A stretch of DNA of 64,000 bases. Source: Maribacter sp. MJ134 (lineage in GTDB: Bacteria; Bacteroidota; Bacteroidia; Flavobacteriales; Flavobacteriaceae). This document shows positions 33,426 to 57,304 of this stretch, piece after piece. A program made the translations under genes and the position numbers. The first letter of the stretch is position 1. Every line of letters begins with the position of its first letter. The stretch lies in NCBI RefSeq assembly GCF_003970695.1, contig NZ_CP034570.1, forward strand, positions 3,224,001-3,288,000, given 5' to 3'. The notes beneath the pieces are model-generated. The model saw only the letters and a list, made by a program, of their open reading frames with translations, made no database searches and had not been told where the DNA came from.

Positions 33426-33445
33426 AGCTCGTTTTTAAGTTCAAT

Positions 33446-34060: not shown

Positions 34061-34088
34061 TTTATTATTTTTTAAGGGGCCTATGACC

Positions 34089-34931: not shown

Positions 34932-34934
34932 TTT

Positions 34935-35516: not shown

Positions 35517-35578
35517 GATTTCTGGGTTTTGTGAAGTCGAATATTCTTGACTTCTTGTTAAACTTTTTTCTATTGTGA

Positions 35579-41336: not shown

Positions 41337-43523
41337 ATGTTAAGAAAGTCTTTTCCAAATTTTAGACAGTTGGATTCTATGGACTGTGGGCCTACCTGTC
41401 TTAAAATTATTGCTAAATATTATGGAAAAGAGGTTTCCTTAGAATCTTTAAGAAGACATTCTCATATTGATAGAGAGGGAGTTTCACTTGCAGGAATTAA
41501 AGAGGCGGCCCAAACAATTGGATTCGAAACTTTTTCATTTTTTGTCTCCTGGAAGGATTTGGAAACTAAGGTTAACCTGCCATGTATAGTCCACTGGGAG
41601 GGCAATCACTTTCTTACTGTATATAAAATTGGTAGGTCTAAAGTATACGTATCCGACCCGGCCAGAGGTAAATATGATTTAAACTTTCTAGAGTTTAAGA
41701 AAAAATGGAATAGCGAGGGCGAAAAAGGGGTAGTTATGACTTTAGAGCCAACACATGATTTTCTTAATAAGAATGTAGGTAAAAAGGGTAAATATTTACT
41801 GCAAATAATAAGGCATTTTCTCAATTTTGAAGGTCTTTTAAGTCAATTAATATTAGGTTTATTAGTATCCTCAATTATTCAACTTGCTTTGCCATTTTTT
41901 ACCCAAAGTATTGTTGATTATGGCATCGAGTATGAGGATTTGGGATTCATTCAAATTCTTTTAATTTGTCAAGTTTTTCTGATATTAATTCAAGGCTTAA
42001 TTGAGATTTTTAGGGATTGGATTCTTCTCCATATTTCGATGCGTGTCAATATTAGAATGATGTCCGATTACCTTACAAAACTTATACTCTTGCCAGTTTC
42101 TTTTTTTACAAGAAGAGGTGTTGGTGATTTAGTTAAAAGAATTAATGATAATGAGAGAATAGAAGAATTTTTAACCAATGGGTCTTTAACTTTTTTATTT
42201 GACATACTCAACGTATTTCTTTTCGGTTTAGTTCTTATTTTCTACAGCAAATTAATATTTGGAGTATTCTTCTTTGGTTCTCTTGTATATGTGTTGTGGT
42301 CGTTGTCATTTATGAAAAAGAAGGCTCTTTTAGATGAAGACTATTTTAAAGCCAGTGCTAAGAACCAATCAAAAATTTTGGAACTAATTTATGGAATAGA
42401 AGATATAAAAGTCAATGGGTCACAAGAAAGAAGAAAAAAAGAATGGTATGAAACACAATTGAAGTTATTTAAGGTAACGTCCTCGAATCTACGAATAAGC
42501 CATATGCAGATGAATGGCGCACAAATTTTAAATGAATTAAAGAACATTGTAATTGTATTTGTATCTGCATATTCAGTAATTGAGGGTACTTTTAGTTTAG
42601 GAGTAATGCTAGCCATTCAATTTATAATAGGACAACTAAATGTGCCATTGAATAATATGATGAGTTTTTTATTGGATTACCAAAAAGCTGAACTATCTGC
42701 AAGTAGATTATATGAGGTATACCAAGAGAAACCTGAAGAATTTTACAAGGAAAATGATTTAAAAGCAGACCATGATTCTATTATCTTTAGAAATGTTTCC
42801 TTTAGGTATGGACCACCCGGAACACCTTATGCTTTAAAAAATGTTTCCCTATCAATACCAAGAGGTAAGGTGACGGCGATTGTAGGGCATAGCGGTTCTG
42901 GGAAATCTACCTTATTTAGGCTTTTATTGAACTTTTATCCCCCAACTGAGGGCAGTATATATGTAGGTAATCATAGTTTAAATGATTTAAGCATAAAAAA
43001 ATGGCGTCAACTTTGCGGCGTTGTCTTACAGGAAGGAAGGCTTTTTGACGATACCATCGAAAGAAATATTACCGAATCAAAATCAGAACAACCAACAAAC
43101 TTAAAAGAATTAAAAAAAGCTATTAAATATTCCATGCTCGAAGATTTTGTTGAAAATCTTCCATACAAACTTAGAACCAAAGTTGGTAATAATGGGATTC
43201 GTTTGAGCGGTGGCGAAAAGCAAAGAATTTTAATAGCAAGGTCAATATATAAGAATCCAAATTATTTTTTTTTAGATGAACCAACCAGTTCTTTGGATTC
43301 AATTAATGAAACGAATATTCTCAAAAATTTAGAGTCTTTTTATAAAAACAAGACTGTGGTCATAATTGCACATAGGTTATCTACAATTAGAAATGCAGAC
43401 AATATTATAGTTTTAGATAGCGGAAAATTAGTCGAAGAAGGAAATCATAAATCGCTGATTAAGAACAAGTCAGTATATTGGGAATTAGTACAAAATCAAA
43501 TGGATTATTTTGAAAATATCTAA
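41337..43523 (+). CDS. Peptidase C39-containing ABC exporter
   Basis: 728 residues. An N-terminal C39 leader peptidase with full triad, Cys17 (SMDCGPTCL), His91 (EGNHFLTV) and Asp107 (VSDPARG), a six-helix membrane domain (about 165-450), and an ATPase with Walker A GHSGSGKST (about 518), signature LSGGEKQ and Walker B FFLDEPTSS (about 643). Such exporters cut double-glycine leaders and export the mature peptide. The natural substrate nearby is the GG-leader peptide at 46567. First gene of the operon with hlyD. Confidence 0.95.
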   Translation: MLRKSFPNFRQLDSMDCGPTCLKIIAKYYGKEVSLESLRRHSHIDREGVSLAGIKEAAQTIGFETFSFFVSWKDLETKVNLPCIVHWEGNHFLTVYKIGRSKVYVSDPARGKYDLNFLEFKKKWNSEGEKGVVMTLEPTHDFLNKNVGKKGKYLLQIIRHFLNFEGLLSQLILGLLVSSIIQLALPFFTQSIVDYGIEYEDLGFIQILLICQVFLILIQGLIEIFRDWILLHISMRVNIRMMSDYLTKLILLPVSFFTRRGVGDLVKRINDNERIEEFLTNGSLTFLFDILNVFLFGLVLIFYSKLIFGVFFFGSLVYVLWSLSFMKKKALLDEDYFKASAKNQSKILELIYGIEDIKVNGSQERRKKEWYETQLKLFKVTSSNLRISHMQMNGAQILNELKNIVIVFVSAYSVIEGTFSLGVMLAIQFIIGQLNVPLNNMMSFLLDYQKAELSASRLYEVYQEKPEEFYKENDLKADHDSIIFRNVSFRYGPPGTPYALKNVSLSIPRGKVTAIVGHSGSGKSTLFRLLLNFYPPTEGSIYVGNHSLNDLSIKKWRQLCGVVLQEGRLFDDTIERNITESKSEQPTNLKELKKAIKYSMLEDFVENLPYKLRTKVGNNGIRLSGGEKQRILIARSIYKNPNYFFLDEPTSSLDSINETNILKNLESFYKNKTVVIIAHRLSTIRNADNIIVLDSGKLVEEGNHKSLIKNKSVYWELVQNQMDYFENI

Positions 43524-44805
43524 CTACAAAAATTTTGAAGATTCTTTTTTAAGTCGTCCTCCCGGTTGGATGTTAAGGTGGGGGACATTGTTTACGTTTC
43601 TTTTTTTCTTTCTGATTTTTGTCTTTGCCGGAATCTTCAGATATAATGAAATTTTAGATGCAGAAATTCTTGTAACCAGTGAGAACCCTCCAATTGATTT
43701 GTTTAGCAGAAAAAGTGGAAGATTAGTATATAAGAATTTTGAATCGGGAAAGAATGTACATGAAAACGAAATTCTTGCAGTAATAGAAAATTCGTCAAAT
43801 TATCAGGATATCTTCTACTTAAAAGAAAAATTACAAAACGATATAGTATTGTTCAGTACTGTAGAAAAATTGTTTCAGGAATTCCCAAGTAATCTTGAAT
43901 TGGAGACAGATATACACTATTCTTATCAAAGTTTTTTAAAAGCGTTTGAAGAATATTTATTGTTTTTAAACCTTAAAGAAGACAGCCTTACAAGTGATAA
44001 TTTAAAGTCTAGAATTCTTAAATTGAAAAAACAACTAGAGATAAAACAGGGACGTTCAGTTTCGGCTAGTCGAAATTATTGGTTGTCAAATGAAAAGTAT
44101 AAAAGACAACTCGGACTTTTTAAAAAGGGAGTTATTTCCAAACAAGAATTGGATGAATTTGAACAGCAGTTAATTATCTCTAAAAATGATGTAAGTCAAA
44201 TTGAAGAACAGATAGAAGTATTGAAAGCGGATACACTTAGTCTAAAAAATCTCAGTCAAGAATCATTAAATAAAAATTATTCAAATAGTTCTAGCCTTAA
44301 TTCTGAACTACAACTAACAAGACAAGAATTAAAGAGCAAAATAGAGCAATGGGAGAATATTTACACACTTAAGACTCCTGTTTCTGGAAAAGTAACGGTT
44401 TTTGATATTTGGAAAAATCACCAAAATGTTAATGAAGGAGAGCACATAATAACTATAGTACCGGAGAGTGGAAATTTGCTTATAGGAAAATGTAAAGTTC
44501 CAGTTATGAATTCCGCAAAACTTAGACTAGGTCAAAAAGTTATTATAAAACTAGATAATTATCCATTCCACGAATGGGGACATTTATGGGGGACTGTAAA
44601 TGCCATTTCGGAAACTCCTAAAAAGGGAGAAGAGGTTTATTATTCCGTTTATGTTTCCATTCCAGATTTGACCACATCCTTTGGAAAGGAAATAGAATTT
44701 AGACAGGAAATGTTAGGCCAAGCAAAAATAATTCTTGAGGAAGTATCACTTTTAAGGAGAATATTTTACGGAGCTAGAAATATTTGGGAAAATATTCAGC
44801 AATAG
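43510..44805 (+). CDS. HlyD-family membrane fusion protein
   Basis: 431 residues from a TTG start that overlaps the exporter stop by 14 bp; the first ATG (43570) would remove the cytosolic tail preceding the membrane helix (TLFTFLFFFLIFVFAGIFRY, about 25-44). Then a lipoyl-like half, a long coiled coil (about 95-285) and the second barrel half with KTPVSGKVTVFDIWKN. It bridges the ABC exporter and an outer membrane channel, which is not encoded nearby. Confidence 0.88.
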   Translation: MKISNYKNFEDSFLSRPPGWMLRWGTLFTFLFFFLIFVFAGIFRYNEILDAEILVTSENPPIDLFSRKSGRLVYKNFESGKNVHENEILAVIENSSNYQDIFYLKEKLQNDIVLFSTVEKLFQEFPSNLELETDIHYSYQSFLKAFEEYLLFLNLKEDSLTSDNLKSRILKLKKQLEIKQGRSVSASRNYWLSNEKYKRQLGLFKKGVISKQELDEFEQQLIISKNDVSQIEEQIEVLKADTLSLKNLSQESLNKNYSNSSSLNSELQLTRQELKSKIEQWENIYTLKTPVSGKVTVFDIWKNHQNVNEGEHIITIVPESGNLLIGKCKVPVMNSAKLRLGQKVIIKLDNYPFHEWGHLWGTVNAISETPKKGEEVYYSVYVSIPDLTTSFGKEIEFRQEMLGQAKIILEEVSLLRRIFYGARNIWENIQQ

Positions 44806-44826
44806 TTTTTTGTTAAAAAATCATCG

Positions 44827-46494
44827 ATGAAATATAAAAGAGTGTTGATTGTTTTACTTGTTGTTTTGAACAATTCTTTTCTATACTCAAAACAGGACTC
44901 TGTTTCTCTTGATATGAATTCAAGTTATGATTCTCTTAGAGATTTAGAAGATAAGTTGTTTTCAAATAATGATTTTGATTCAATTAGAAACGTGCTAAAT
45001 GTTCATTTAAAAAAAGCTAAATCTGAAAATAATTTAGAGGAGTTATCATGGGCGTATTACTATTTTATGTTCTTCGAAGAGGATGAGAAAGCGATTATAT
45101 ACGCCGATTCAGCAATAACAATTTCAGAAAAGGAAATTAATTATTTATTGCCTGGCACTGCTTATTATATGAAAGGCTTAATTTATTACGAAAATGGGAA
45201 GATAGATTCTAGTCTTTCCAATTTAATAAAGTCATATGATTTATCCAAAATAACTAAAAATTATGAGCAAACAGTTGATTGCCTGAATGGTATAGCATCA
45301 ATAAAAGTTAGTTATGGCGAAGAAAAACAGGCATTAAAACTACATAAAGAAGCACTTATCTATTTGGCAAATAATAATAAAAGTATAAGAAGTGCAGACT
45401 ATACAAGATTGGTCACAATGGAAAATCTAGCAAAAGGATATTTGGAGATTGGATATTTAGACTCTGCAAGGACTACCACAAAAGATGCAATCATATTGGC
45501 AGAAAAAATAAATGAAAAGGAACTTTTAAATAGCCTAAGCATTTTTAGAGCTCAAATAAATTACTATGATAATAAATTTTTAGTCGCTAGAGACACTCTG
45601 CAAAAATATGTTGAAACAATGCCCGAAATGTCCAAGGCTGATATATACTATTATTTGGGAAATATTGAGGAAAAATTACAAAACCAAACAGGTAAGCTTG
45701 CCTATTTTAAAAAAATAGATTCAATTATTGGAAGCGAATTAAAAAGCTTGGATAATGTAAAGGATATATATCAAACATTACTATCGGATGCTATAAATCA
45801 AAATGATAAAGAAAGAGAACTAGAATATTTAAAAAAACTGATTCATTACGATAGTATCCAATTTAATAGGTATAAAAATGTCAGAAATATCGGTAAATCA
45901 CAATTTGATTTACCGAAACTCCAAAACCTTAAATCCGAATTGGAAGTTAAAATAAACCGTGAAAAGCTCCTCAAAAAATGGCTTATCCTTCTTTTAGCAG
46001 CTTTCTTAGTGCTTATCTCACTTCTTATTTATAGAAATAGAATTATTGAAATTAGATTAAAATCTGTATTATCAAAAAGAATAGTACCGAAAATATCGAA
46101 TAACATAATTCGAAACGATTTAGATTTAGATGAACATATTTATTATAATATAACTACTGGTCTGGAGCAATGGGAAGAGAAAAAGGGCTTTTTGGATAAG
46201 GAAATGACTTTGCAAAAGCTTTCGAAAATACTTGATACTAACAGTACTTATCTAAGTAGGATCGTAAATGTAACTAAGGAACAAAATTTTTCGAGTTATC
46301 TCAAAGATTTAAGAATTACGTACGCTATAAATTTTTTAAAGGAGAATCCTGAATTCATAGGCACTAAATCAAATATCGTTCTTGCAGAATATTTTGGATT
46401 TAATTCTTTAGATGTTTTTACGCGGGCATTAAAAGAAAAAATTGGTTTGACTCCTTATATGTTTCTAAAAGGAATAAAATCTCGCAATTTATAA
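44827..46494 (+). CDS. TPR-containing AraC-type membrane regulator
   Basis: 555 residues: signal peptide (MKYKRVLIVLLVVLNNSFLY), about six tetratricopeptide repeats in the periplasm (about 50-360), one membrane helix (KKWLILLLAAFLVLISLLIY, about 383-402) and a C-terminal AraC HTH (about 455-552, LSKILDTNSTYLSRIVN and NIVLAEYFGFNSLDVFTRAL). This architecture senses an external signal and acts on DNA directly. Placed between exporter and precursor peptide, it is likely to control peptide production, possibly in response to the peptide itself. Confidence 0.85.
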   Translation: MKYKRVLIVLLVVLNNSFLYSKQDSVSLDMNSSYDSLRDLEDKLFSNNDFDSIRNVLNVHLKKAKSENNLEELSWAYYYFMFFEEDEKAIIYADSAITISEKEINYLLPGTAYYMKGLIYYENGKIDSSLSNLIKSYDLSKITKNYEQTVDCLNGIASIKVSYGEEKQALKLHKEALIYLANNNKSIRSADYTRLVTMENLAKGYLEIGYLDSARTTTKDAIILAEKINEKELLNSLSIFRAQINYYDNKFLVARDTLQKYVETMPEMSKADIYYYLGNIEEKLQNQTGKLAYFKKIDSIIGSELKSLDNVKDIYQTLLSDAINQNDKERELEYLKKLIHYDSIQFNRYKNVRNIGKSQFDLPKLQNLKSELEVKINREKLLKKWLILLLAAFLVLISLLIYRNRIIEIRLKSVLSKRIVPKISNNIIRNDLDLDEHIYYNITTGLEQWEEKKGFLDKEMTLQKLSKILDTNSTYLSRIVNVTKEQNFSSYLKDLRITYAINFLKENPEFIGTKSNIVLAEYFGFNSLDVFTRALKEKIGLTPYMFLKGIKSRNL

Positions 46495-46566
46495 ATTGCA
46501 GAATCTAAATGAATCAAATTTTAATTCAAATCATTAAATTACTGACAATATTAAAAACCTTGAATT

Positions 46567-46710
46567 ATGAAACAAATGAAAACACATTTTGAAAATTCTG
46601 AAATTACGAATTTATCAATGATTAAAGGAGGTGGGGATGGTGGCCCAATTGATCCTAAGAAAATGCCTAAAAGGCCTCCCAGTCCTGTACCACCTAGAAA
46701 AAAGAAATAG
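46567..46710 (+). CDS. GG-leader precursor of a cationic proline-rich peptide
   Basis: 47 codons, starting at ATG 46567. The leader HFENSEITNLSMIKGG (residues 7-22) has the hydrophobic spacing and GG end of C39-processed leaders. Cutting after GG would give a 25-residue product starting GDGGPIDPKK with seven Pro and nine Lys/Arg, and no Cys, Ser/Thr clusters or Trp for crosslinks. The tail KRPPSPVPPRKKK resembles proline-rich antimicrobial peptides. It lies between the regulator and the prolyl oligopeptidase gene. Bacteriocin or signal role is inferred. Confidence 0.7.
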   Translation: MKQMKTHFENSEITNLSMIKGGGDGGPIDPKKMPKRPPSPVPPRKKK

Positions 46711-46770
46711 TCCACTTAATGGTATATTAATTAGCCCTATCAATTTGATAGGGTTTCTTATATTTGAAGT

Positions 46771-48918
46771 ATGAAACACCCCTATTTCTCTCTGTTAATA
46801 ATAGTCTTTCTTTACAACTGTGAAAAACAAAAAACCTTTGACTATCCAGAGACAAACAACATTGTTGAAAGCATCACAAATTTTGATATAACTTACACTA
46901 ATAACTTTTCAAATCTTGAAAACTTCAAAAGTGAAGAATCTAAGAATTGGTTTACAATTCAGGATTCGATTGCTGAACAATATTTTCTTAATAACCCTAA
47001 ATATGGAGAATTAAAAGAACACCACGAGTCCCTATATTATAGAGAATATGATTACGCATATGATCTTAAATATGATGAAAATAGTAACGTTTATTTTCTA
47101 ACCTATATATATGAAGGAGATAATCCCATATTAAATTTAATTAAAAAATCCACCTTAACAAATACTGAAAAAAGCATATACAAATCTATTAATTACAAGG
47201 ATGGAACATATGATATAGAATATTATAAACCATCTTACGATGGGTCAAAATTGGCCCTGGCTTTTGGCAAAGAAGACGTCTTTTTTAATGAAATCGTTAT
47301 TTTGGATACCTCTACTGGTAAAATTGTTGGTAACCCCATCCTTAATACAAAACCGAATAAGGCAGGTGGTATAATCTGGTCTCCAGACAATGAGTCCATA
47401 CTTTTTATCAAATATCCAGATTTGAACAATGAGAATAGCGATAGAAATAGCTATACAGCATATGTAAACACTAATTCTAATGAACACAAAACTATTCCAA
47501 TTTTTAAGAATAAATCAAATAATTTAAATTTCAGTGAGGAATATTATCCGGTTCCTGTTTTTAGATCCGAACAGAGTAATTATTTGTTTACCTATATTGG
47601 TAATGCTTCAAATCACTGGGATTGTTATTACATAACTGCAGATGATTTTTTTAGTAATAATTTAAATTGGAAATTATTATTTCAAGAGCAAGACCAAGTA
47701 TTATATGATTATGGAATAGAAAAAGACCACAAGTATTATTATAAAAGAATAAATAATAATGTCCTTGAATTGTGCTACACAAACCTAAAGAACCCCGACT
47801 TTAAGAATCCTATTGTTATATATAAAAGTTCAGGAGGCGAGCAACTACAAAACTTTAAGGTAACATCAGGCGGTATATATTTTTCTGTATCCAATAATGG
47901 TGTATCTGAAAAATTATATAAAGCCAATGATGACGGTTTCAAAAAGAAGATTCCTCTTCCTAAAGTGACTGGAGAAATTTCTTTTGATTTCAGATCACCC
48001 TACCAAAGTGATTTATGGGTAAATCTATCTTCTTGGTCTGCTAACCCTTTTAGATACAAGGTACAGGAAGACACTTTGATTTTAGATAAGCTAGGGATGC
48101 TCGCTGAATATCCAGAGTTTGACAATATTGTTACTGAGATTATTGAGGTAGAATCACATGATGGAGAGTTAGTTCCTTTAAGTATTATAAAAAATAAGGA
48201 TTTCAAAAAAACTAATAATACCAAAGCAATTATTACAGCTTATGGGGCATATGGGTTTCTGGAAAAACCTTGGTTTCATCCATCTATTGCGGACTTTGTA
48301 AAATCTGGAAACATATATGTTACCGCACATGTACGGGGTGGGGGTGAAAAAGGACCTGATTGGCACGAACAAGGAATGAAATCTTTGAAGGAAAATTCAT
48401 GGAAAGACTTAATCAATTGTAGCGAATTTTTATTGCAAAATAGTTTTGTAGATAAGGGTAATCTGGCTCTAAACGTCAATAGTGCAGGTGGTATTGCAGG
48501 TGCAATGGCAGTTAATAGTAGACCGGACCTATACAAAGTATTTACAGGATTTTTACCGTCATTGAATCCAATAAGAATCGAGTCAATGAAAGATTTTGAT
48601 GATTCTGATAATATATTTGAGTTTGGAACTGTGAAAGAGGAGCAGAGTTACAAAGATTTATTGAAAATGGATCCTGTTGTAAATTTTTCTTCAGGAATTA
48701 AATATCCTAGCACATATATCATTATTGGTTTTAATGATTATTTAGTACCTCCATCAGATGGCGGGAAACTTATTGCTCTCTTACAATCTTCAACTGAAAA
48801 TCATGAAAAACCTTATTTGCTTGATGTTAAGATTAATGCAGAACATGACATTGACTGGTTAGAAGATTATTCAAGAATGCTGTTTTTTACTATTAACGAA
48901 CTTGACAGAGAATATTAG
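46771..48918 (+). CDS. Prolyl oligopeptidase-family lipoprotein (S9)
   Basis: 715 residues. N-terminal lipoprotein signal (MKHPYFSLLIIVFLYNC, Cys17), a seven-bladed propeller region (about 60-430) and a C-terminal alpha/beta hydrolase with RGGGEKGPDWHEQG and the triad Ser571 (NVNSAGGIAG), Asp656 (GFNDYLVPP) and His692 (INAEHDIDW). Such enzymes cleave after proline in short peptides. Being a surface or periplasmic lipoprotein encoded 60 bp after a proline-rich peptide, it could mature or inactivate that peptide. Confidence 0.88.
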   Translation: MKHPYFSLLIIVFLYNCEKQKTFDYPETNNIVESITNFDITYTNNFSNLENFKSEESKNWFTIQDSIAEQYFLNNPKYGELKEHHESLYYREYDYAYDLKYDENSNVYFLTYIYEGDNPILNLIKKSTLTNTEKSIYKSINYKDGTYDIEYYKPSYDGSKLALAFGKEDVFFNEIVILDTSTGKIVGNPILNTKPNKAGGIIWSPDNESILFIKYPDLNNENSDRNSYTAYVNTNSNEHKTIPIFKNKSNNLNFSEEYYPVPVFRSEQSNYLFTYIGNASNHWDCYYITADDFFSNNLNWKLLFQEQDQVLYDYGIEKDHKYYYKRINNNVLELCYTNLKNPDFKNPIVIYKSSGGEQLQNFKVTSGGIYFSVSNNGVSEKLYKANDDGFKKKIPLPKVTGEISFDFRSPYQSDLWVNLSSWSANPFRYKVQEDTLILDKLGMLAEYPEFDNIVTEIIEVESHDGELVPLSIIKNKDFKKTNNTKAIITAYGAYGFLEKPWFHPSIADFVKSGNIYVTAHVRGGGEKGPDWHEQGMKSLKENSWKDLINCSEFLLQNSFVDKGNLALNVNSAGGIAGAMAVNSRPDLYKVFTGFLPSLNPIRIESMKDFDDSDNIFEFGTVKEEQSYKDLLKMDPVVNFSSGIKYPSTYIIIGFNDYLVPPSDGGKLIALLQSSTENHEKPYLLDVKINAEHDIDWLEDYSRMLFFTINELDREY

Positions 48919-49736
48919 ACTTCTAGAGAATCCATCGAATTTAAAATAGCACTTTCCAATTCGTTCAAGAACTTCGCTTTGCTCTTTTTTCTTGACCTAA
49001 TTTCATTATAAATTCTATAAACATCACCAACTTTAATATTAAAGGTGGATTGTAAGGCTTGAGTAATTTGTTTAATCCCAATATTGCCATTGTTTATTAC
49101 CCTTGCACTGTGCAAAGCATATATTAGCTCTACCAAAGAGGTTTTAGAAGACGTCCATTTTATATTTTTATTTGAATTCGTCAAAACCTTTCTAGAAAAT
49201 TTCTGCTCATTTTGTAAAAAAGAGAGTATTTTTTTATTAGCCATAATCTTTGCTAACAGCCTGTCCTTAGGTGTATTAAAATTAGGATCTAATATTTCAA
49301 GTTCTTGATTCTTACATATTAAATAATCAAGATGGCCTCGAGTAAAATAAAATTCGTCTAAATAATTTCTTCCGGTCTCTACATATTGAATAAACTCAAA
49401 ATGTTTTAGAAAGAATTTATTAATAACACCAATTTTTTCATTTAAAAAGTTATGCTTGTAATCATCGGTCAATAATGAAAGCTTAGAATTTATTTCGTAA
49501 ACTTCAGAATAATAAAGTAGTGAAGTAAGTACTACCTGTTTATCATTCTTAAAAAACTTTATTTCCTCCTCAATAGAGTCAAAGCCGGAAGCGATAATCT
49601 CTGTTTTCTTTTCTGAAAGAAACTTACTCGAAAGCCTTACAACTTGTTCACATGTATTTTGTATATCTAGGTGCCGTTCTTCAATATTCAAGACTTGCTT
49701 CTCAAATTTTTCTATAGAATTTATTCTCTTCTTCAT
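48915..49736 (-). CDS. rteC: RteC-domain transfer regulator
   Basis: About 273 residues from ATG 49736 (MKKRINSIEKFEKQVLNIEE); an upstream in-frame start adds 10 residues. All-helical protein with the RteC C-terminal segment (SKTSLVELIYALHSARVINN, VGDVYRIYNEIRSRKKSKAK). In CTnDOT, RteC activates excision genes by binding an inverted repeat. Its 3' end overlaps that of the prolyl oligopeptidase gene by 4 bp, and it is divergent from the small HTH gene at 50048. Confidence 0.85.
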   Translation of the reverse strand: MKKRINSIEKFEKQVLNIEERHLDIQNTCEQVVRLSSKFLSEKKTEIIASGFDSIEEEIKFFKNDKQVVLTSLLYYSEVYEINSKLSLLTDDYKHNFLNEKIGVINKFFLKHFEFIQYVETGRNYLDEFYFTRGHLDYLICKNQELEILDPNFNTPKDRLLAKIMANKKILSFLQNEQKFSRKVLTNSNKNIKWTSSKTSLVELIYALHSARVINNGNIGIKQITQALQSTFNIKVGDVYRIYNEIRSRKKSKAKFLNELESAILNSMDSLEV

Positions 49737-50047
49737 ATCCAAGTATATTAAAAGAGGAAAGCTCACTTTGGGAAACCAACACTATAAATGTCAAAAAAAA
49801 CTATAAAATATAAAAAGATGATTTTCAGTGTTTTATAAATAGAATGATTTTTTGGAATTATTTACAACCTAGATTTCTGCGGAAAGCCTTTTGTTAAACA
49901 TAATTCCAAATCAATTCAAACATTGGTAAATAAAAGTCACTATTTATAAATGACGATTGCAATTTATAAATAGCGTTTTTTTTTGATAGAATACTAAATA
50001 AGTAATGAGCATTTTCGTAATCGAACTTAAATATTCTCAGCTTATTT
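49737..50047. other. Divergent control region between rteC and HTH gene
   Basis: 311 bp, very AT-rich, no gene. TTTATAAATAG occurs three times: at 49832-49842, and as the two arms of the inverted repeat at 49940-49973. Confidence 0.55.
49940..49973. promoter_or_regulatory. Operator-like inverted repeat near rteC
   Basis: CTATTTATAAAT (49940-49951) and ATTTATAAATAG (49962-49973) are perfect complements 10 bp apart, and a further half-site lies at 49832-49842. RteC of CTnDOT binds an inverted repeat, so this is a candidate site for RteC or for the HTH protein. Confidence 0.5.
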
Positions 50048-50586: not shown

Positions 50587-50721
50587 ATGAAAAAAGAGAA
50601 TGAAGTATTAAAAAATTTTCAAATAGAGGAGCTTGAAAAAAGATTTGAAATGGGCTGGGGACGTAGGCTTGAGTTACTTCTAGAAGATGCATGCGAGTGT
50701 GAACTTCCAGATCAAAAATAA
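50587..50721 (+). CDS. EMGW-family precursor peptide 1
   Basis: 44 codons. It opens MKKENEVLKNFQIEELEKRF and continues EMGW, then a 20-residue variable tail GRRLELLLEDACECELPDQK containing two Cys. No signal peptide and no GG motif. The N-terminal 24 residues are shared with the peptides at 54337 and 54629, while the tails differ, the signature of a leader plus variable core. It immediately precedes the isoprenoid-synthase fusion gene. Confidence 0.75.
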   Translation: MKKENEVLKNFQIEELEKRFEMGWGRRLELLLEDACECELPDQK

Positions 50722-50934
50722 GTTTTTGAATACGATGGGCAGTCAGATTAATCTGAATCAAAGTTGCTACAATTAGTGAATTTCTAACTGTAAACTGTGA
50801 TAATATATCTTTTGTTTTTGCCTAAAATGGAATTTTTCTGATTTAAGGAATCATTAAAAACGTCAATAAGTGGTTGTCCAAACTGATAAAATTAAGACGA
50901 CTAAATTTTAAATTCTTTGTAAAATTTTAAATTT

Positions 50935-52830
50935 ATGATAGATATAAATTCGTTAGTAAAAGAAGATAGCTCACCGGTTTTTTATCAAAACTACCCGCGA
51001 TTATTCGCTAAGTATTTTACAGACATTAACCCGGAAGTAATAAATCAATTATCGAAAGCTGGTTATTTTTATTACCATTCCACATTATTGACCGACTCCT
51101 TAATCGATGATAAAGAGTTTGCCAATTTTCCAATGATAACTCTTTTGCAAGAAGAAACGATTAAAATGCTGACTTCGGTTTATGGGAAGGACTCGGATTT
51201 TTGGAAATATTGGAATCAAAGAAGACAAGAGTATTTCACAGCAGTAAAAATTGAGAAAAAACTTGATTACGATTCAAATATAAGCTTGACCGAATATGAG
51301 GATTTAGCTGATAAAAAAGCGGCTTTCGGTAAGGTGGCTATCGATTGTTTATATCTGCTTTCGAATAAAGCAGATGATGAACTATATCGGCTTTTGTTAA
51401 AATCACATTACTATTTTTCAGTTGGGTTTCAATTATATGACGATGTTAAGGATTTTAAGGAAGATTTTGAAAAAGGACAATTCAATTGGGCACTTTATCA
51501 ACAGAGGAATGAGAATTACCATGACAAATACAAGGGCGACATTAGAACCCTGAACAAGCTACTTTTTATTAACGGTATGGGACCAAAAATCATGACTCAA
51601 TCAATATCATACTTTAAAAAAGCTATTAAAATCATAGAAGATTTAAAAGGAGATAGTGAATGGAAAGAAGTGATTTTTGAAATGAAACAGACCATTGAAA
51701 GTTATCTTGATATTACCGTGGGTTATATTAAAACGATTGAGAGAAGAATAGAAATAAAGGATAACAAATATGGATTATACAACTTCTTTAACTACGATAA
51801 TGTTCAAAACAAAATGGTAAAGAATGCTCTTCATTATTTGAAAGACTGTTATTTGAAAAATTATTCTGATTTAAAGCATATCATGTATTTAAGTAATCAA
51901 GAAGGCTTTGAGAATTATGACCAGGTACACGTCTCAGACGTTTTTCAGAGAGCTATGTTAAATGATTGTTTGATGGATGTTTGTAAGGAGTATAAGGTTA
52001 ATGTTGCTGACTTTTTCGATTTTGAATGTGACTATTTAATTGGGCAACGAAATCCAGATGCTATAGGAGCTTGGTCCTATTTCCCCAAGGTAAAAGAAAT
52101 TGCTGCTGATATTGATGACCTTGGGCAAATAATGCAACTATTTATCAAGTCAGGTAATAGAAAGCATATAGCAAATTACTGCCAAAATGCAATCGATTTA
52201 ACCTTATCTGATAGGGTAACGGAATCGGGTGGTATTGAAACTTGGATTGTGCCAAAACAAAATAGAAATGTTTTACAAGAGAAACAAGAAAATTTCAACT
52301 CTACAAAATGGGGAAAAGGTCCAGACGTAGAAGTGGTCGCAAATTTTGTTTACGCGCTTTCCATCTATGATTCAACTCAATATGAATCAACAATTAAAAA
52401 TGCAATATCGTTCATTTTAGAAAATCAAAATCATTTAGGATTTTGGGAAAGTAGATGGTACTATGGTAACTTTTATGGTACCTATGTATGTCTGAGATTG
52501 CTGAATGAATATGATGAGCAACATTCGATTTATATTCAAAAAGGATTGGAATATATTTTAGAGGAACAAAATCTGGATGGGGGTTTTTCTATGTTAGATA
52601 GCGGTAAGTCAGATGCCCTTACAACTGCTTTCGCCCTACTGTCTCTAAAGTTATTTTTTAGTAAAGACCACAAATCTGTTGTAAGGGCAATTGATTATCT
52701 CAAAACAAATCAACACCCTAGTGGTTATTGGGAAGCTATTAATTTCATAAAACCCAAAGCCCAAGAGCCTTATAAAAGTAAAACGATAACGACAGCATTT
52801 GTCATTAAAGCATTATGTAATGTCAACTAA
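50935..52830 (+). CDS. Class I isoprenoid-synthase domain fused to squalene-cyclase-like repeats
   Basis: 631 residues. The N-terminal all-helical domain has both acidic motifs of trans-isoprenyl diphosphate synthases: D54-x3-D58-D59 (LTDSLIDD) and D169-D170-x2-D173 with E176-D177 (QLYDDVKDFKED). The C-terminal region (about 460-630) has prenyltransferase/squalene-oxidase repeats: GFWESRWYYGNFYGTYVCLR, QNLDGGFS and HPSGYWEA. I see no DxDD acid motif of class II cyclases there. The stop overlaps the next gene by 11 bp. It probably binds an isoprenoid diphosphate; transfer to a precursor Trp is hypothesised. Confidence 0.8.
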   Translation: MIDINSLVKEDSSPVFYQNYPRLFAKYFTDINPEVINQLSKAGYFYYHSTLLTDSLIDDKEFANFPMITLLQEETIKMLTSVYGKDSDFWKYWNQRRQEYFTAVKIEKKLDYDSNISLTEYEDLADKKAAFGKVAIDCLYLLSNKADDELYRLLLKSHYYFSVGFQLYDDVKDFKEDFEKGQFNWALYQQRNENYHDKYKGDIRTLNKLLFINGMGPKIMTQSISYFKKAIKIIEDLKGDSEWKEVIFEMKQTIESYLDITVGYIKTIERRIEIKDNKYGLYNFFNYDNVQNKMVKNALHYLKDCYLKNYSDLKHIMYLSNQEGFENYDQVHVSDVFQRAMLNDCLMDVCKEYKVNVADFFDFECDYLIGQRNPDAIGAWSYFPKVKEIAADIDDLGQIMQLFIKSGNRKHIANYCQNAIDLTLSDRVTESGGIETWIVPKQNRNVLQEKQENFNSTKWGKGPDVEVVANFVYALSIYDSTQYESTIKNAISFILENQNHLGFWESRWYYGNFYGTYVCLRLLNEYDEQHSIYIQKGLEYILEEQNLDGGFSMLDSGKSDALTTAFALLSLKLFFSKDHKSVVRAIDYLKTNQHPSGYWEAINFIKPKAQEPYKSKTITTAFVIKALCNVN

Positions 52831-54031
52831 TTATAGTGATTTAATACCCGTGCTTTCAGATGATGTAGAATATAACAGACTCACAGAAAACGAATTTATT
52901 TTAAGCAATAGGACACACCGACACTATTTAAAAATAAATAATAAAGTGTACAATTTATTATGCCAGGTAGATGGTAAAAAGACCTTAAATGAACTTTCAC
53001 AATCTTTTTTTGATTCCTTTGGAGAAAAAATAAATGTAGTTACAATTCACGACTTACTCTACGAAAAACTTTCTATGTATGGTATTTTGGAAGGTATGAC
53101 TGAAAAAATCAAAGGGTATGAAAAACCATCCTATTTGAATTTAAGTTTTATCATTTTCCCAGAAAAGATCGTTCATAAGCTTACAAGTAAACTGCACTTC
53201 TTATTCGAAAGAAAATATGTGATTTTAATTCTTTGTCTATCGACAGCAATCATATCATCATTGTTGTTTTTTAATTATAGCCTTTTTGAGTCATTTAATC
53301 TTCAGAATAGCATGATTTATTTTTTTTCTGTAATGGCCTCAAGTGTCACGTTTCACGAGTTAGGACATGCTACTGCGGCCAGTTATTACGGTGCTAAACA
53401 TGGCGGTATCGGTGGAGGATTTTATTTGTTTACTCCTGTCTATTATGCAGATGTCACCGATATTTGGCGATTAAGCAAAAGACAGCGTATTATCGTGAAC
53501 ATATCGGGCATGTATTTTGAACTTGTTTTTTGTTCTATTTTATGTCTAATAGCTTTTTTATTGGGAAACAACATATTATTACTTGTCGCAATTACGGTTT
53601 GTTTATACACTTTATTTAATCTCAACCCTTTTTTGAGGAGTGACGGCTATTGGGTGTTGTCTGACTTAACGAATAAGCCGAATCTGTTCTTTCATTCAGC
53701 TAATAAAGTAAAGGATATTTTTAAATTCATTTTTCTTAGAAAACGTATTCAATGGAAGGTCAAAGATGTATTTCTCTTTGCCTATGGCTCTGTGAGTTTC
53801 GTTTTTATAGGCCTATTTCTATATTATGTCTTAATTGAAAACCCTAATTCCTTGCTTGATTTTCCCAAAAATGCCTATAACTTTTTAAGGAGTCTTTTTG
53901 ATCCTAGTTCTGAATTTTCATTGATCAAATACGGAGAATTAATCGTCCCTCTAATGTTCTACTCGCTTATCATAAAGCTCTGTTTTGGTTCTATTCGGAA
54001 GCAAATTGCAAAAATGAAACTATTATCCTAA
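52820..54031 (+). CDS. PqqD-like/M50 membrane metalloprotease
   Basis: 403 residues from ATG 52820, overlapping the previous stop by 11 bp; an in-frame TTG lies 7 codons earlier. The N-terminal 95 residues (LSDDVEYNRLTENEFILSNR...DGKKTLNELSQSF) have the PqqD-like fold used to bind peptide leaders. Then a membrane-embedded M50/S2P protease: H179-E180-L-G-H183 in FHELGHATAAS and D275 in NPFLRSDGYW are the zinc ligands. About six to seven membrane helices. It most likely recognises the EMGW leaders and cuts or exports the modified peptide. Confidence 0.85.
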   Translation: MSTNYSDLIPVLSDDVEYNRLTENEFILSNRTHRHYLKINNKVYNLLCQVDGKKTLNELSQSFFDSFGEKINVVTIHDLLYEKLSMYGILEGMTEKIKGYEKPSYLNLSFIIFPEKIVHKLTSKLHFLFERKYVILILCLSTAIISSLLFFNYSLFESFNLQNSMIYFFSVMASSVTFHELGHATAASYYGAKHGGIGGGFYLFTPVYYADVTDIWRLSKRQRIIVNISGMYFELVFCSILCLIAFLLGNNILLLVAITVCLYTLFNLNPFLRSDGYWVLSDLTNKPNLFFHSANKVKDIFKFIFLRKRIQWKVKDVFLFAYGSVSFVFIGLFLYYVLIENPNSLLDFPKNAYNFLRSLFDPSSEFSLIKYGELIVPLMFYSLIIKLCFGSIRKQIAKMKLLS

Positions 54032-54144
54032 TCAGTAAAGACTACAATTTCTAAATTACTTATATAAAAATTGTAACTGCAAGGATTATGCAGTGGCTGC
54101 AGTTACATTTACGTTAGTAATTAAGTACAATAAAAGAAATATTT
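54032..54144. other. Intergenic segment with repeated hairpin
   Basis: Contains the hairpin ACTGCAAGGATTATGCAGTG (54076-54095), a second copy of the element upstream of precursor 1. An outer TAACTGCA/TGCAGTTA pairing (about 54074-54105) may extend it. No gene. Confidence 0.45.
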
Positions 54145-54233
54145 ATGAACGATAAATAGTAAATCAATTTGAAATTGAAGAATTGGAAAAAAGATTTGTA
54201 ATGGGTTGGGGAAGAAAAAAAGGTCGGTGGTGA
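54145..54233 (+). pseudogene. Broken EMGW precursor (frameshifted paralogue)
   Basis: From ATG 54145 the frame meets TAG after four codons. One frame over, the sequence reads VNQFEIEELEKRFVMGWGRK and ends KGRW-stop at 54231-54233, unmistakably the precursor family with VMGW for EMGW. A single missing base around 54157 would explain the break. It has the upstream hairpin of the family. Confidence 0.65.
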
Positions 54234-54336
54234 CTACCAATTATCTGATAAGCCAATTAACGAATGGTAAATGACTCAGGATTGAAAAGTTTGTAATTAA
54301 GGTGAAAAATCTAATTAACGGTTAAAACTAAATATA

Positions 54337-54474
54337 ATGAAACAACAAAACAAAGTACTAGTTAACTTTCAAGTAGAAGAACTTGAAAAGCGTTTTGAGA
54401 TGGGTTGGAAGGCTAAAGCTTTGGTATCGGCAAAGGACAGGGCTGACCTTGAAGCATATGGTGAGATTGAATAA
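54337..54474 (+). CDS. EMGW-family precursor peptide 2
   Basis: 45 codons. Opens MKQQNKVLVNFQVEELEKRF, then EMGW, then a charged tail of 21 residues (KAKALVSAKD..., ending YGEIE) without Cys. Leader nearly identical to precursor 1. No signal peptide. Confidence 0.75.
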   Translation: MKQQNKVLVNFQVEELEKRFEMGWKAKALVSAKDRADLEAYGEIE

Positions 54475-54628
54475 TAAATACCTCGACTAAAGTTTAATTT
54501 AAAGGCGAGAGGACCATTGAAAGCAAACTGATATAATACAGGATAACAATTGACTTAAACATTTACAAAAAGGAAAAAGCTGATGCCTACATAAAGAAGG
54601 TTTTTTATTAATAATTAATTTTAGTAAT

Positions 54629-54772
54629 ATGCAAAACGAAGTTTTGGAAATTTTTGAGGTTGAAGCCTTAGAAAAGCGCTATGAGATGGGCTGGATTAAA
54701 TCAGCTGAAATCAATGGCAAAGTAACAAGCGATGGCAAAATGGAGGCTGGATTCAAATTAGGAATCAAATAG
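54629..54772 (+). CDS. EMGW-family precursor peptide 3
   Basis: 47 codons. Opens MQNEVLEIFEVEALEKRYEM, then GW, then a 25-residue tail (IKSAEINGKVTSDGKM..., ending FKLGIK). The leader keeps the FxVExLEKR(F/Y)EMGW pattern. It is 69 bp upstream of the carboxypeptidase-like domain protein. Confidence 0.75.
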   Translation: MQNEVLEIFEVEALEKRYEMGWIKSAEINGKVTSDGKMEAGFKLGIK

Positions 54773-54841: not shown

Positions 54842-56014
54842 ATGAAGATGAAATTCTTTTTTTATTTAGCCTTTGCTTTTCATCTTGGAATTTTCAGCCA
54901 AACAAAAGATTTGGTAGTATTAAACTCCGAGACTAGCGAAGGTCTTGATTTAGTAAACGTTTTTTACCCGAAACTAAATGAAGGTTCAATTACTAATGCT
55001 AGCGGAAAAGTTAGAATTGAATTAAGAAAGGATTCGTTGACTTTTAGCCATATCAACTATTCTTCGAGCAGGGTATCATATGAAAATTTATCTACTATTG
55101 ATACTATTTATTTAGTTCCCAAAGAAAATACACTCAGCGAAGTGATTGTGACTAATTTTGATTTGAAAAAAAAATTGAGAACTACCTTTGAGAATTATAG
55201 CAAATATTACCCTACTCTGGCAATAACTAATGAGAGTACTTATAAGGAAGTATATAGAACAAACAATAAATTGGCGAGACTTATACAAGTGCAGTTAAAA
55301 TGGTGGCACAAAGACTATAAATACAATTTTAAAAAGAACTTGAATAAGCAAAGTGAATTTAGTTTAGTTGAAATAGATTATTCTAAAATCTCTAATGATT
55401 CTACTCTGTCAAAAGCAGGATTTATTGAAAATAAAAGCCTTGTCCCAACATTTCATCTAAACTACTATATTTTATATCTCTTGGATTATTGTAATGAAAT
55501 TTATATTGATAAGTTAATTAAGAACGAAAATTCCACTAAAGTTATTTTCACCTCAGACGTTTTTGATAATAATGAAAAAATAGCTTCGTTAAACAAAAGT
55601 GAATTGATTTTTGATGAAAAGGGTGCTATTATTTACCTCAAATTTATCCTTGATTATAATAATTTTTCATACGAAGAATATTCCGAAAGAAAGCGGACAA
55701 AATATACCGGACAGACACAACGGCAAATTATGGAGTTGAACTTCAAACAGATTAATAACAGTATTTATAATTTAAGCTCTTACAAATCTCAGTTATTAGG
55801 CACTATAAGTTATTCTGGAAACACTGATTCTTTTGATATCAGACAGGAATTATTTATAACCAAAAGCTATAAAAGTAAATCAATAAAAAACTCAGAAATA
55901 ATAGACCTTGAAAAGCCATTTTACGAAAATATAACTAGTTATAAAAATTTAGAAAATAAAATACTATTGACTTCTGAAGAACTTGAATTTATTAATGATA
56001 GCATTAATAAATAA
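54842..56014 (+). CDS. Secreted protein with CarboxypepD_reg-like domain
   Basis: 390 residues. Signal peptide (MKMKFFFYLAFAFHLGIFSQ), then a beta-sandwich regulatory domain (about 22-100: VVLNSETSEGLDLVNVFYPK, NEGSITNASGKVRIE, FSHINYSSSRV) as found at the N terminus of TonB-dependent receptors and other Bacteroidota surface proteins. The rest (about 110-390) is beta-rich without a barrel. Following the precursors, it could be a receptor-linked or immunity protein of the peptide system. Confidence 0.7.
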   Translation: MKMKFFFYLAFAFHLGIFSQTKDLVVLNSETSEGLDLVNVFYPKLNEGSITNASGKVRIELRKDSLTFSHINYSSSRVSYENLSTIDTIYLVPKENTLSEVIVTNFDLKKKLRTTFENYSKYYPTLAITNESTYKEVYRTNNKLARLIQVQLKWWHKDYKYNFKKNLNKQSEFSLVEIDYSKISNDSTLSKAGFIENKSLVPTFHLNYYILYLLDYCNEIYIDKLIKNENSTKVIFTSDVFDNNEKIASLNKSELIFDEKGAIIYLKFILDYNNFSYEEYSERKRTKYTGQTQRQIMELNFKQINNSIYNLSSYKSQLLGTISYSGNTDSFDIRQELFITKSYKSKSIKNSEIIDLEKPFYENITSYKNLENKILLTSEELEFINDSINK

Positions 56015-56050: not shown

Positions 56051-57304
56051 TTAGGCAACAATCCATTCATTGGCTTCATCCAAAATTTTATTCTCAAAAC
56101 TTTTTAGGTAAACTTCGGTGGTACGCATAGAATTATGACCAAGCCCCTCGCGTATAACTTCTGTCGAAACACCAAGGTATTTGGCGATGGTAGCCCAAGA
56201 GTGACGTATCGTATAGGTAGTAAATTTTTCTTCAATACCTGCATCATTTGCAATGATTTTTAGCCGTTCATTCACACGTCTGCGAATAGATTTATATTTT
56301 TCATAATGCTCTGTACTTCCATCATAGTTAATAGGAAACAGATAATCCTCTTTATTCTTACCTAAAGTATAATGGTCTAAAATCGCTGAAAGTTCAACAG
56401 TTATTTTAACCGAAAGCGGATCACCTGTTTTACTTCTCCCGTAATATAGCCTGTCACCTTCGATATTTTTCAATTTTAGTTTGACCAAATCTATTAAGTT
56501 CATACCTCTACAGTTAAACATGATTAAAATATAATTTTTGGCATGCCAAAGGATAGAATCTTTGGGGTAGCGTAAATTTCTTATTTCCAAAAAGTTGTTT
56601 TTAGATGTAGCTCTTTTTTTGGTCGTTTTACTAGAAGGTATTTTGTACTTTAAAAAAGGGTTTCTCATGGGTACAAATTCATCCTCTTCGATGGCTTTGT
56701 TATAAAGTGCCCGTATACCTCTCATATAGGAATTGATCGTGCCCGGTTTATTTCCCCTAGCTACAAAATCCACTTCATAATCCTGCAGAAGGCTTACAGT
56801 TATCTCATCAAGCCGAATATCCTTGGTGTTATTGAACTTTAAAAACCTTTTTATACAGCTATCATACCACTCGGCGGTGGAGGGAGAGTTCATCCGTCGC
56901 TTTCTGTTTATGATTTTGGTTCCGCACTCCAATAACGTTGTTCCGTTATTTATTCTATGTCTTTCAGGTGTATCGATTACACTATCCCAAGAAAGCTTGA
57001 TTTCCTTAACAAGATAATCCACATCGATTTTTGAAATATCACTCCCAAAGCTTTTAATTTTTTTCTTGGCAAGATGCAATTTATCGTGAAGTTCGTCTTC
57101 GATTGAATCGTAATCTTTGTATTTGTTAGAGGGATCTGATTTTTTCAATCGACCATTTCTATCATCCCATCCATTTATGGAAGTAGACAAACCAAGAGCT
57201 ATAAATCGAGTTTTCCTATGATGAACACGAAGAGCAATAGGAAAAGTACCATCTTTCCTTTTGGAGTTATTTCTAGTATCTAAAGTCAGTCTTACAACGG
57301 CCAT
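56051..57304 (-). CDS. Tyrosine site-specific integrase of element B
   Basis: 417 residues. N-terminal arm-binding domain (MAVVRLTLDTRNNSKRKDGT), SAM-like core-binding domain, catalytic domain with Arg I in FNCRGMNLIDL, Lys in YYGRSKTGDP, YTIRHSWAT (Arg II, His), GLGHNSMRTTEVYL with His and the Tyr nucleophile. In contrast to integrase A, Arg I is present. It lies 170 bp from the core at 57474, at the right end of element B, reading inward. Confidence 0.95.
   Translation of the reverse strand: MAVVRLTLDTRNNSKRKDGTFPIALRVHHRKTRFIALGLSTSINGWDDRNGRLKKSDPSNKYKDYDSIEDELHDKLHLAKKKIKSFGSDISKIDVDYLVKEIKLSWDSVIDTPERHRINNGTTLLECGTKIINRKRRMNSPSTAEWYDSCIKRFLKFNNTKDIRLDEITVSLLQDYEVDFVARGNKPGTINSYMRGIRALYNKAIEEDEFVPMRNPFLKYKIPSSKTTKKRATSKNNFLEIRNLRYPKDSILWHAKNYILIMFNCRGMNLIDLVKLKLKNIEGDRLYYGRSKTGDPLSVKITVELSAILDHYTLGKNKEDYLFPINYDGSTEHYEKYKSIRRRVNERLKIIANDAGIEEKFTTYTIRHSWATIAKYLGVSTEVIREGLGHNSMRTTEVYLKSFENKILDEANEWIVA

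What the first reader, a model, noticed from the sequence alone, without database searches (positions are those of the whole stretch)
50587..54772. Candidate new peptide-modification system: EMGW precursors with an isoprenoid-synthase/cyclase fusion and a PqqD-M50 protease
Seen: three intact short ORFs share LEKR(F/Y)EMGW with an invariant Trp and have variable tails; between them lie a protein with both acidic motifs of isoprenyl diphosphate synthases plus squalene-cyclase-like repeats, and a protease with an N-terminal PqqD-like domain. Known: ComQ, an isoprenyl-synthase-fold enzyme, prenylates a Trp of the ComX peptide in Bacillus; PqqD domains bind RiPP leaders. Inferred: the Trp of EMGW, or a tail residue, is prenylated, and the cyclase-like domain may fold the attached chain, followed by leader removal by the M50 protease. 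I know of no described class with this set.
Basis: partly seen in the sequence, partly recalled or inferred. Interest (0 to 1): 0.95.

Follow-up and report, generated by a model that had tools for sequence, protein, structure and literature searches.

The report
Peptide prenylating and terpene-cyclising gene cluster
A probable mobile element in a Bacteroidota genome carries genes for small peptides whose fixed tryptophan is most likely given a ring-shaped terpene by one two-part enzyme and then cut free by a membrane protease; this enzyme type is already described, but its wider family seems to include unstudied members that may act on tyrosine instead.

Summary
Three intact EMGW peptides flank an isoprenyl-synthase/squalene-cyclase fusion and an M50 protease with an N-terminal leader-binding (PqqD-like) fold; a broken fourth copy lies at 54150-54215. 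The set is conserved: in one 395-genome sample the 10 genomes with a clear prenyltransferase-domain match all carry a matching precursor, against 1 of the other 385. In 26 of 26 distinct precursors beside DxDD-type fusions, a Trp sits 3-8 residues after the LExRxE leader motif. A 2026 review (PMC13290415) says that ChrPC, a fused trans-IDS-like prenyltransferase and cyclase, prenylates a peptide Trp with C10-C20 donors and cyclises the chain (Hubrich et al. 2024, not held here). I file this as a new member of that kind; ChrPC's own sequence could not be compared. The new element lies outside the window: of 19 distinct precursors beside cyclase-free relatives, 17 have Tyr at exactly +4 and no Trp within 8 residues, predicting a Trp-to-Tyr switch. 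The review says that all characterised enzymes of this type target Trp. Nothing here shows the modification itself.

The parts
50587..50721 (+). precursor peptide 1 (44 aa, ...ELEKRFEMGW..., Trp at +3 after LExRxE)
   Evidence: precursor profile E 2.5e-16; the profile contains this row
50935..52830 (+). fusion maturase: P domain (about residues 14-276, trans-isoprenyl diphosphate synthase fold, D54xxxD58 and D169DxxDxxxD177) and C domain (about 293-627, class II terpene cyclase toroid, D392IDD395)
   Evidence: (pLDDT 90.2)
52820..54031 (+). M50 (site-2-type) metalloprotease with N-terminal RRE/PqqD-like domain; H179ExGH183 and N269P...D275G
   Evidence: (pLDDT 87.2)
54150..54215 (+). degenerate fourth precursor copy (LEKRFVMGW, stop codon inside); described only
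   Evidence: E 9.2e-6, 1 TAA
54337..54474 (+). precursor peptide 2 (45 aa)
54629..54772 (+). precursor peptide 3 (47 aa)
54842..56014 (+). CarboxypepD_reg-like protein (390 aa), recurrent in the cluster (9 of 17 loci); role unknown
   Evidence: (PF13715 E 1.6e-7, 31.7 of 32.2 bits)

Best explanation
A RiPP cluster of the ChrPC type. The three precursors are recognised through the leader motif F-x-(V/I)-E-x-L-E-K-R. The P domain transfers an isoprenyl chain (C10-C20 by analogy with ChrPC), supplied by the cell's ordinary prenyl diphosphate synthases, onto the Trp 3 residues after the leader motif. The C domain protonates and cyclises the attached chain through its DIDD motif. The terpene-anchored peptide is then delivered by the RRE domain of the M50 protease to its membrane-embedded HExGH site, which cuts leader from core, possibly with export. 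Shown here: the genes, their conserved association, the fixed Trp, the predicted folds and the catalytic motifs. Inferred: every chemical step, the chain length, the order of steps, the cut site and the export.
For: (1) Association: of 395 phylum genomes the fusion query hit 16; 10 have a clear P-domain match and all 10 carry a precursor-profile match, as does 1 of the other 385 (Fisher p 4.8e-19). Left out of the 10: five genomes matched only in the toroid part, and G393, with a weak match in the P-domain region (E 1.6e-4) and no precursor; counting it gives p 5e-18. Six of the 10 helped to build the profile; with the other four alone p is 5e-9. Of 17 loci with a DxDD-type fusion (window and L038-L053), 16 have the PqqD-M50 gene (not L046) and 14 have a precursor (not L038, L046, L047). 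(2) Trp: 26 of 26 distinct precursors beside DxDD-type fusions have Trp at +3 to +8 (13 at +3, 9 at +4); shuffled cores give 9.6 on average, at most 19 in 2000 shuffles. (3) Fold: model pLDDT 90.2; C domain matches monodomain cyclases (8pak_A TMt 0.75, MstE 0.69-0.71), P domain matches octaprenyl diphosphate synthase (3wjo_B TMt 0.68, E 2.4e-5). (4) D54, D58, Q166, D169, D170, D173, D177, D392, D394, D395 are invariant in 16 aligned fusions. (5) Two prenyl synthase matches over the Pfam cut-off elsewhere in the genome, so the fusion is hardly the housekeeping enzyme. (6) Precedents: ChrPC (PMC13290415 section 2.4); the M50 protease EpeP in epipeptide maturation (PMC10885120, passages).
Against: No chemistry was tested and no modified peptide is known. 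ChrPC's sequence and the primary paper were not available, so kinship with ChrPC rests on architecture, on its name and on a 55%-identical Chryseobacterium defluvii fusion. The Gln upstream of the second Asp motif, which the review ties to Trp recognition, is also kept in the Tyr-associated relatives, so here it does not discriminate. L047 has fusion, protease and radical SAM enzyme but no precursor that I could find. L046 shows neither protease nor precursor in its 4.1 kb upstream, where its near relative L045 has both; its contig ends just after the fusion. For the second set of fusions (DxDS/T), 10 of 14 precursors have Trp in the first 8 positions, but shuffles reach 11 (mean 4.9), so there the position alone is not beyond chance. 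The precedent EpeP was not fully required: the cited review says its deletion did not abolish the product. The cut site of this protease is unknown.
Confidence: 0.8

Rival explanations
1. The P domain prenylates the peptide Trp, but the C domain no longer cyclises: it is a docking or chain-holding domain, so the product is a linear prenyl-Trp peptide of ComX type.
For: Family members without the C domain exist beside EMGW precursors (L091, L092), so the C domain is dispensable for whatever the P domain does. In a second set of fusions the motif is DxDS/T rather than DxDD.
Against: DxDD and a surrounding set of residues are invariant in all 16 aligned DxDD-type fusions down to 27% identity; the domain resembles monodomain cyclases; the review states that ChrPC's C domain facilitates cyclisation.
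Confidence: 0.1
2. The fusion is a free terpene synthase (makes and cyclises a prenyl diphosphate), and the peptides and protease form a neighbouring, separate peptide system.
For: Both domains are also found in ordinary terpene pathways. A P450-like gene (my reading) lies in one relative's cluster (L031).
Against: 10 of 10 clear P-domain genomes in the 395-genome sample have adjacent precursors and the precursor profile hits only 1 further genome; acceptor residue and enzyme architecture co-vary; no terpene-tailoring family recurs in 3 or more of the 23 loci compared.
Confidence: 0.05
3. The conserved Trp belongs to the protease or leader recognition signal; the modified residue lies in the variable tail.
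For: Tails vary and often hold Cys, Tyr or Lys; the Trp directly follows the leader motif; the cut site is unknown. In the Flavobacteriales Tyr cores, Phe +1 and Thr +2 are as invariant as Tyr +4 (15 of 15).
Against: The Trp position drifts from +3 to +8 and moves to +19/+20 in one clade, as an acceptor could but a cleavage motif hardly would; in the alignment of 23 precursors of DxDD-type fusions the Trp is the only invariant residue after the leader motif; the review says characterised trans-IDS-like peptide prenyltransferases target Trp.
Confidence: 0.05

Closest known systems
ChrPC (fused prenyltransferase-cyclase RiPP maturase, by its name probably from Chryseobacterium; Hubrich et al. 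2024, Chem 10:3224; seen only as reference 26 and through PMC13290415 section 2.4)
   [quoted passage not shown] Trp acceptor.
   Different: ChrPC's sequence, precursor and accessory genes could not be compared. The window copy probably lies on a mobile element, with three precursors, one degenerate copy and a PqqD-M50 protease; whether the chr cluster has the protease is not known to me.
NctPC (fused ABBA-fold prenyltransferase and MstE-like cyclase; PMC13290415 section 2.3, passage)
   Same: Geranylgeranylates Trp, then cyclises; C domain of monodomain-cyclase type.
   [quoted passage not shown] here it is the isoprenyl-synthase fold.
ComQ and PalQ (trans-IDS-like Trp prenyltransferases; PMC10853753 section 5 part 1 of 2 and section 12; PMC13290415 section 2.4)
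   Same: Isoprenyl-synthase fold acting on a peptide Trp.
   Different: No cyclase domain is described; PalX has a nitrile-hydratase-type leader and C-terminal Trp; the pal cluster is given as three genes (histidine kinase PalP, PalX, PalQ), without an M50 protease.
EpeP/YydH-type epipeptide and daptide M50 proteases (NF058609, NF041824)
   Same: M50 RiPP protease family; EpeP is precedent for maturation and proposed export (PMC10885120, passages).
   Different: Scores far below both curated cut-offs (71.1 of 225 and 121.2 of 300 bits).

Membership tests
ChrPC-type fused prenyltransferase-cyclase RiPP maturase | N-terminal domain of isoprenyl-synthase (trans-IDS-like) fold | tested here: met
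   AlphaFold2 model pLDDT 90.2; 3wjo_B TMt 0.68, E 2.4e-5
ChrPC-type fused prenyltransferase-cyclase RiPP maturase | first and second Asp-rich motifs | tested here: met
   D54xxxD58 (reduced form) and DDxxDxxxD invariant in 16 fusions
ChrPC-type fused prenyltransferase-cyclase RiPP maturase | C-terminal class II terpene-cyclase domain with DxDD | tested here: met
   PF13243 E 2.8e-20; 8pak and MstE hits; DIDD 392-395
ChrPC-type fused prenyltransferase-cyclase RiPP maturase | adjacent precursor with a conserved Trp | tested here: met
   3 of 3 intact window precursors; 26 of 26 distinct precursors of DxDD-type fusions
ChrPC-type fused prenyltransferase-cyclase RiPP maturase | prenylates peptide Trp and cyclises the chain | not testable with these tools
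   needs expression and mass spectrometry/NMR
ChrPC-type fused prenyltransferase-cyclase RiPP maturase | sequence kinship with ChrPC itself | not testable with these tools
   primary paper not held; nearest named proxy is the Chryseobacterium defluvii fusion, 55% identical
polyprenyl synthetase (PF00348) | score over gathering cut-off | tested here: not met
   16.7 of 27 bits
squalene-hopene cyclase (TIGR01507) | score over equivalog cut-off | tested here: not met
   46.5 of 431.1 bits
daptide metalloprotease (NF041824) | score over equivalog cut-off | tested here: not met
   121.2 of 300 bits
YydH/LiaK epipeptide metalloprotease (NF058609) | score over equivalog cut-off | tested here: not met
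   71.1 of 225 bits
M50 site-2-type protease with RiPP recognition element | HExxH, NPxxxxDG and winged-helix N-terminal domain | tested here: met
   H179 E180 G182 H183 N269 P270 D275 G276 invariant in 16; SpoIVFB and TbiB1 are the top fold hits, though all E are above 0.001; Pfam M50 score 21.8 of 27.2 bits
ComQ (IPR033965) | profile match to the ComQ family | not tested
   InterPro not on hand; no ComQ profile appeared among the Pfam or NCBIfam matches

The most novel reading that the evidence does not exclude
The window enzyme is one branch of a larger Bacteroidota family of leader-guided peptide prenyltransferases in which the leader motif LExRxE acts as a ruler and the acceptor has switched. 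Enzymes fused to a cyclase act mostly on Trp at +3/+4 (or on a Trp near the C-terminus in one clade with DxDS/T cyclases), while the cyclase-free enzymes of two lineages act on Tyr at exactly +4. That would be the first trans-IDS-like peptide prenyltransferases for tyrosine. A third branch adds a radical SAM enzyme working beside the terpene-bearing Trp, where Cys follows within two residues.
Probability: 0.4. Interest if true: 0.7.

Novelty: new member of a known kind. Interest (0 to 1): 0.5.

Why it matters
Terpene-bearing ribosomal peptides are a very recent class with, in the review I could read, two fused enzymes named (ChrPC, NctPC). This cluster adds a compact example with three natural cores, plus a family-wide alignment that predicts the modified residue, the leader signal and a likely leader protease. 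The Tyr-associated, cyclase-free relatives make the question of how these enzymes choose their acceptor directly testable by swapping cores and enzymes. Lipidated, ring-bearing peptides are of interest as membrane-active compounds.

Tried and rejected
Rejected: 'new class' (the review describes the same architecture). Daptide or epipeptide membership of the protease (far below cut-offs). The Gln upstream of the second Asp motif as a marker of the acceptor: kept in 41 of 44 enzymes, the 12 Tyr-associated ones included, and replaced by Cys in the three with C-terminal Trp. Led nowhere: viral contigs (no relative); a plain-text search for EMGW (967 papers, the 20 listed unrelated); word searches for papers on such peptides or on ChrPC (no primary paper held; the review was found through); a search of the same 395 genomes with the cyclase-free profile (9 genomes, no new lineage, and it missed G297, which has the fusion); PqqD/daptide literature. 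The statement that the Tyr switch is not in print rests only in this open-access library; the 2024 primary paper could not be read. DxDTT as a known class II variant is recalled and comes from no call; the one paper searched for it does not use the term.

Weak points of the counts: relatives are not independent; 11 of the 12 Tyr-associated enzymes form one clade and the tree's well-supported branches force only one origin of the Tyr label (quick tree with long branches). In the 15 Flavobacteriales Tyr cores Phe +1 and Thr +2 are invariant too. Small ORFs were picked by the leader motif, so the motif's presence is by selection; Trp and Tyr were not part of the selection, except that one search also looked for EMG(W/F/Y) forms and for MG(W/F/Y). 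The precursor profile (A4) was built partly from genomes in the same sample. L041 has both a DxDD and a DxDS fusion; its three precursors are counted with the DxDD set. In the radical SAM comparison, L074 and L075 count as without it on only about 1.5 kb of flank.
Full report
What is there. Three short ORFs (50587-50721, 54337-54474, 54629-54772) share F-x-(V/I)-E-(E/A)-L-E-K-R-(F/Y)-E-M-G-W and differ in their tails. The 631-residue protein (50935-52830) has a C-terminal half that matches squalene-hopene cyclase domains (PF13243, E 2.8e-20) and an N-terminal half that only faintly resembles polyprenyl synthetases (16.7 bits, cut-off 27). The next gene, whose ATG at 52820 overlaps the end of the fusion, matches M50 peptidases weakly in Pfam, and daptide and epipeptide proteases with better E-values but far below their cut-offs. 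A fourth leader at 54150-54215 is broken by a stop. The gene at 54842-56014 belongs to the recurrent set too.

Structure. AlphaFold2 on an alignment of 16 gives pLDDT 90.2 for the fusion. Foldseek matches its C domain to monodomain class II cyclases (8pak_A, TMt 0.75; MstE, 0.69-0.71) and its P domain to octaprenyl diphosphate synthase (3wjo_B, TMt 0.68, rmsd 3.5). The Asp residues of both motifs (D54, D58; D169, D170, D173, D177) and of the cyclase motif D392-I-D394-D395 are invariant across the 16. The protease model (pLDDT 87.2) has an N-terminal domain that pairs with the leader-binding TbiB1 of lasso peptides and a body that pairs with SpoIVFB, with probability near 1 but no E below 0.001. 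Its HExGH and NP...DG residues are invariant in 16.

Conservation of the set. A named-genome scan found 18 related loci; L054 and L055 match only the cyclase part. Of the window and the 16 loci with a DxDD-type fusion (L038-L053), 16 of 17 have the PqqD-M50 gene, 9 of 17 the CarboxypepD_reg-like protein and 8 of 17 a radical SAM protein (families of examples). Precursors were found in 14 of 17. The misses: L038 begins at the fusion; L046 has neither protease nor precursor in 4.1 kb upstream and ends after the fusion; L047 is a true miss. In a sample of 395 genomes of the phylum the fusion query hit 16: 10 have a clear P-domain match, five match only toroid repeats, and G393 has a weak match in the P-domain region (E 1.6e-4). 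A precursor profile run on the same 395 hit 11: those 10, with the peptide next to the enzyme, and G328. Fisher p is 4.8e-19, 5e-18 with G393 counted and 5e-9 on the four genomes that did not help to build the profile. G328's peptide has the leader but no such enzyme that I recognise within about 9 kb. Denser samples: 15 of 173 genomes of the Chryseobacterium defluvii genus and 12 of 397 of the window's family have a match at E 1e-20 or better.

The acceptor. I tabulated 59 distinct precursors. Beside DxDD-type fusions, 26 of 26 have Trp at +3 to +8 after LExRxE (13 at +3, 9 at +4), in 24 of them the only Trp of the core; shuffled cores give 9.6 on average, at most 19. Beside fusions with a DxDS/T motif, 10 of 14 have it at +3 or +4 (shuffles: mean 4.9, maximum 11, so weak by itself), and 4 (L031, L061, two of L062) have it at +19/+20, near the C-terminus. 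Beside enzymes with the P domain alone, 2 of 19 have Trp at +3 (L091, L092); the other 17 have no Trp within 8 residues but Tyr at exactly +4 (shuffles: mean 0.9, maximum 6), mostly as FTFYC or FTCYC. These 17 come from 11 loci of one Flavobacteriales clade, in whose cores F +1 and T +2 are invariant too, and from the distant L034, which shares the Tyr but not these two. On a quick tree the Tyr label needs two changes, but well-supported branches force only one. This co-variation of architecture and acceptor is the strongest sign that the residue after the leader is the one modified, and it suggests an unreported Tyr branch.

A second regularity. In clusters with a radical SAM protein, Cys follows the Trp within two residues in 7 of 7 precursors, against 2 of 19 without (Fisher p 5e-5, relatedness not corrected; L074 and L075 were seen with only 1.5 kb of flank). 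A radical SAM step beside the terpene-bearing Trp is a guess.

How it most likely works. Leader recognised through LExRxE; prenyl chain from the housekeeping diphosphates (two other synthase genes over the Pfam cut-off in the genome) moved to Trp by the P domain; chain cyclised by the C domain; leader cut by the membrane protease, to which a terpene anchor would bring the substrate. EpeP, an M50 protease, is precedent for maturation and proposed export of an epipeptide, although its deletion did not abolish the product (PMC10885120, passages). Only genes, conservation, predicted folds and motifs are shown.

What is known. The 2026 review PMC13290415 (outline, section 2.4 in full, passages, and part 1 of 4 of the reference list) names ChrPC, a trans-IDS-like P domain that modifies an internal Trp with C10-C20 donors and a C domain that facilitates cyclisation, and NctPC, a fusion with a different prenyltransferase fold. 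It states that all characterised trans-IDS-like enzymes target Trp. The primary paper (Hubrich et al. 2024) is not held. The window cluster is therefore best filed as a new member of that kind; the nearest named relative on hand is the Chryseobacterium defluvii cluster (L042, fusion 55% identical, six precursors).

Setting. RteC and, by my reading of the ORFs, conjugation proteins and an integrase place the cluster on a probable integrative conjugative element.

Noticed in passing
L063-L070, L072, L083, L084, L034: P-domain-only enzymes beside precursors with Tyr at exactly +4 after the leader motif and no Trp within 8 residues, followed by a PqqD-M50-like gene by my reading (L034's protease by BLAST): possible tyrosine prenylation.
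   Followed up: partly
L043, L045, L048, L049, L051, L052, L053: Radical SAM maturase in the cluster goes with Cys within two residues after the conserved Trp (7 of 7 against 2 of 19).
   Followed up: partly
L031, L061, L062: Precursors ending in or near ...(I/V)CW; their fusions have DxDS cyclase motifs and Cys in place of the Gln upstream of the second Asp motif.
   Followed up: no
window 41337-48918: A second peptide cluster by my reading of the ORFs: C39-peptidase-type ABC transporter, HlyD-like protein, TPR regulator, a GG-leader peptide (46567-46710) and a prolyl oligopeptidase (PF00326).
   Followed up: no
window 32487-37987, 48915-49766, 56051-57304: Conjugation-type proteins and integrase (my reading) and RteC (PF09357, E 2.2e-60): the cluster is probably cargo of an integrative conjugative element.
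   Followed up: no
L086 6614-9543: In genome G457 the fusion gene is split by a 305-aa ORF that reads like an insertion element, while G555 and G450 carry a closely similar unbroken copy.
   Followed up: no
L041 5894-12346: Two tandem fusions (one DxDD, one DxDS), three precursors and an M50 protease with an extra MauE-like domain (PF07291).
   Followed up: no
L030 8270-11096, L054 6162-9056: Stand-alone cyclase-type domain beside two proteins that read like PhyH dioxygenases and a very large protein; no precursor that I recognised.
   Followed up: no
window 54629-54772; L050, L074, L075, L092: A recurrent core type, (M/L)GW-x-K-x-x-E-(V/I)...ending in short alternating basic and hydrophobic residues, shared across genera, unlike the diverse other cores (sequences).
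   Followed up: no
L123 8867-9004 (G328): A peptide with the same leader (SVEKLEERYEM) but no Trp and no prenyltransferase-like gene that I recognised within about 9 kb.
   Followed up: partly
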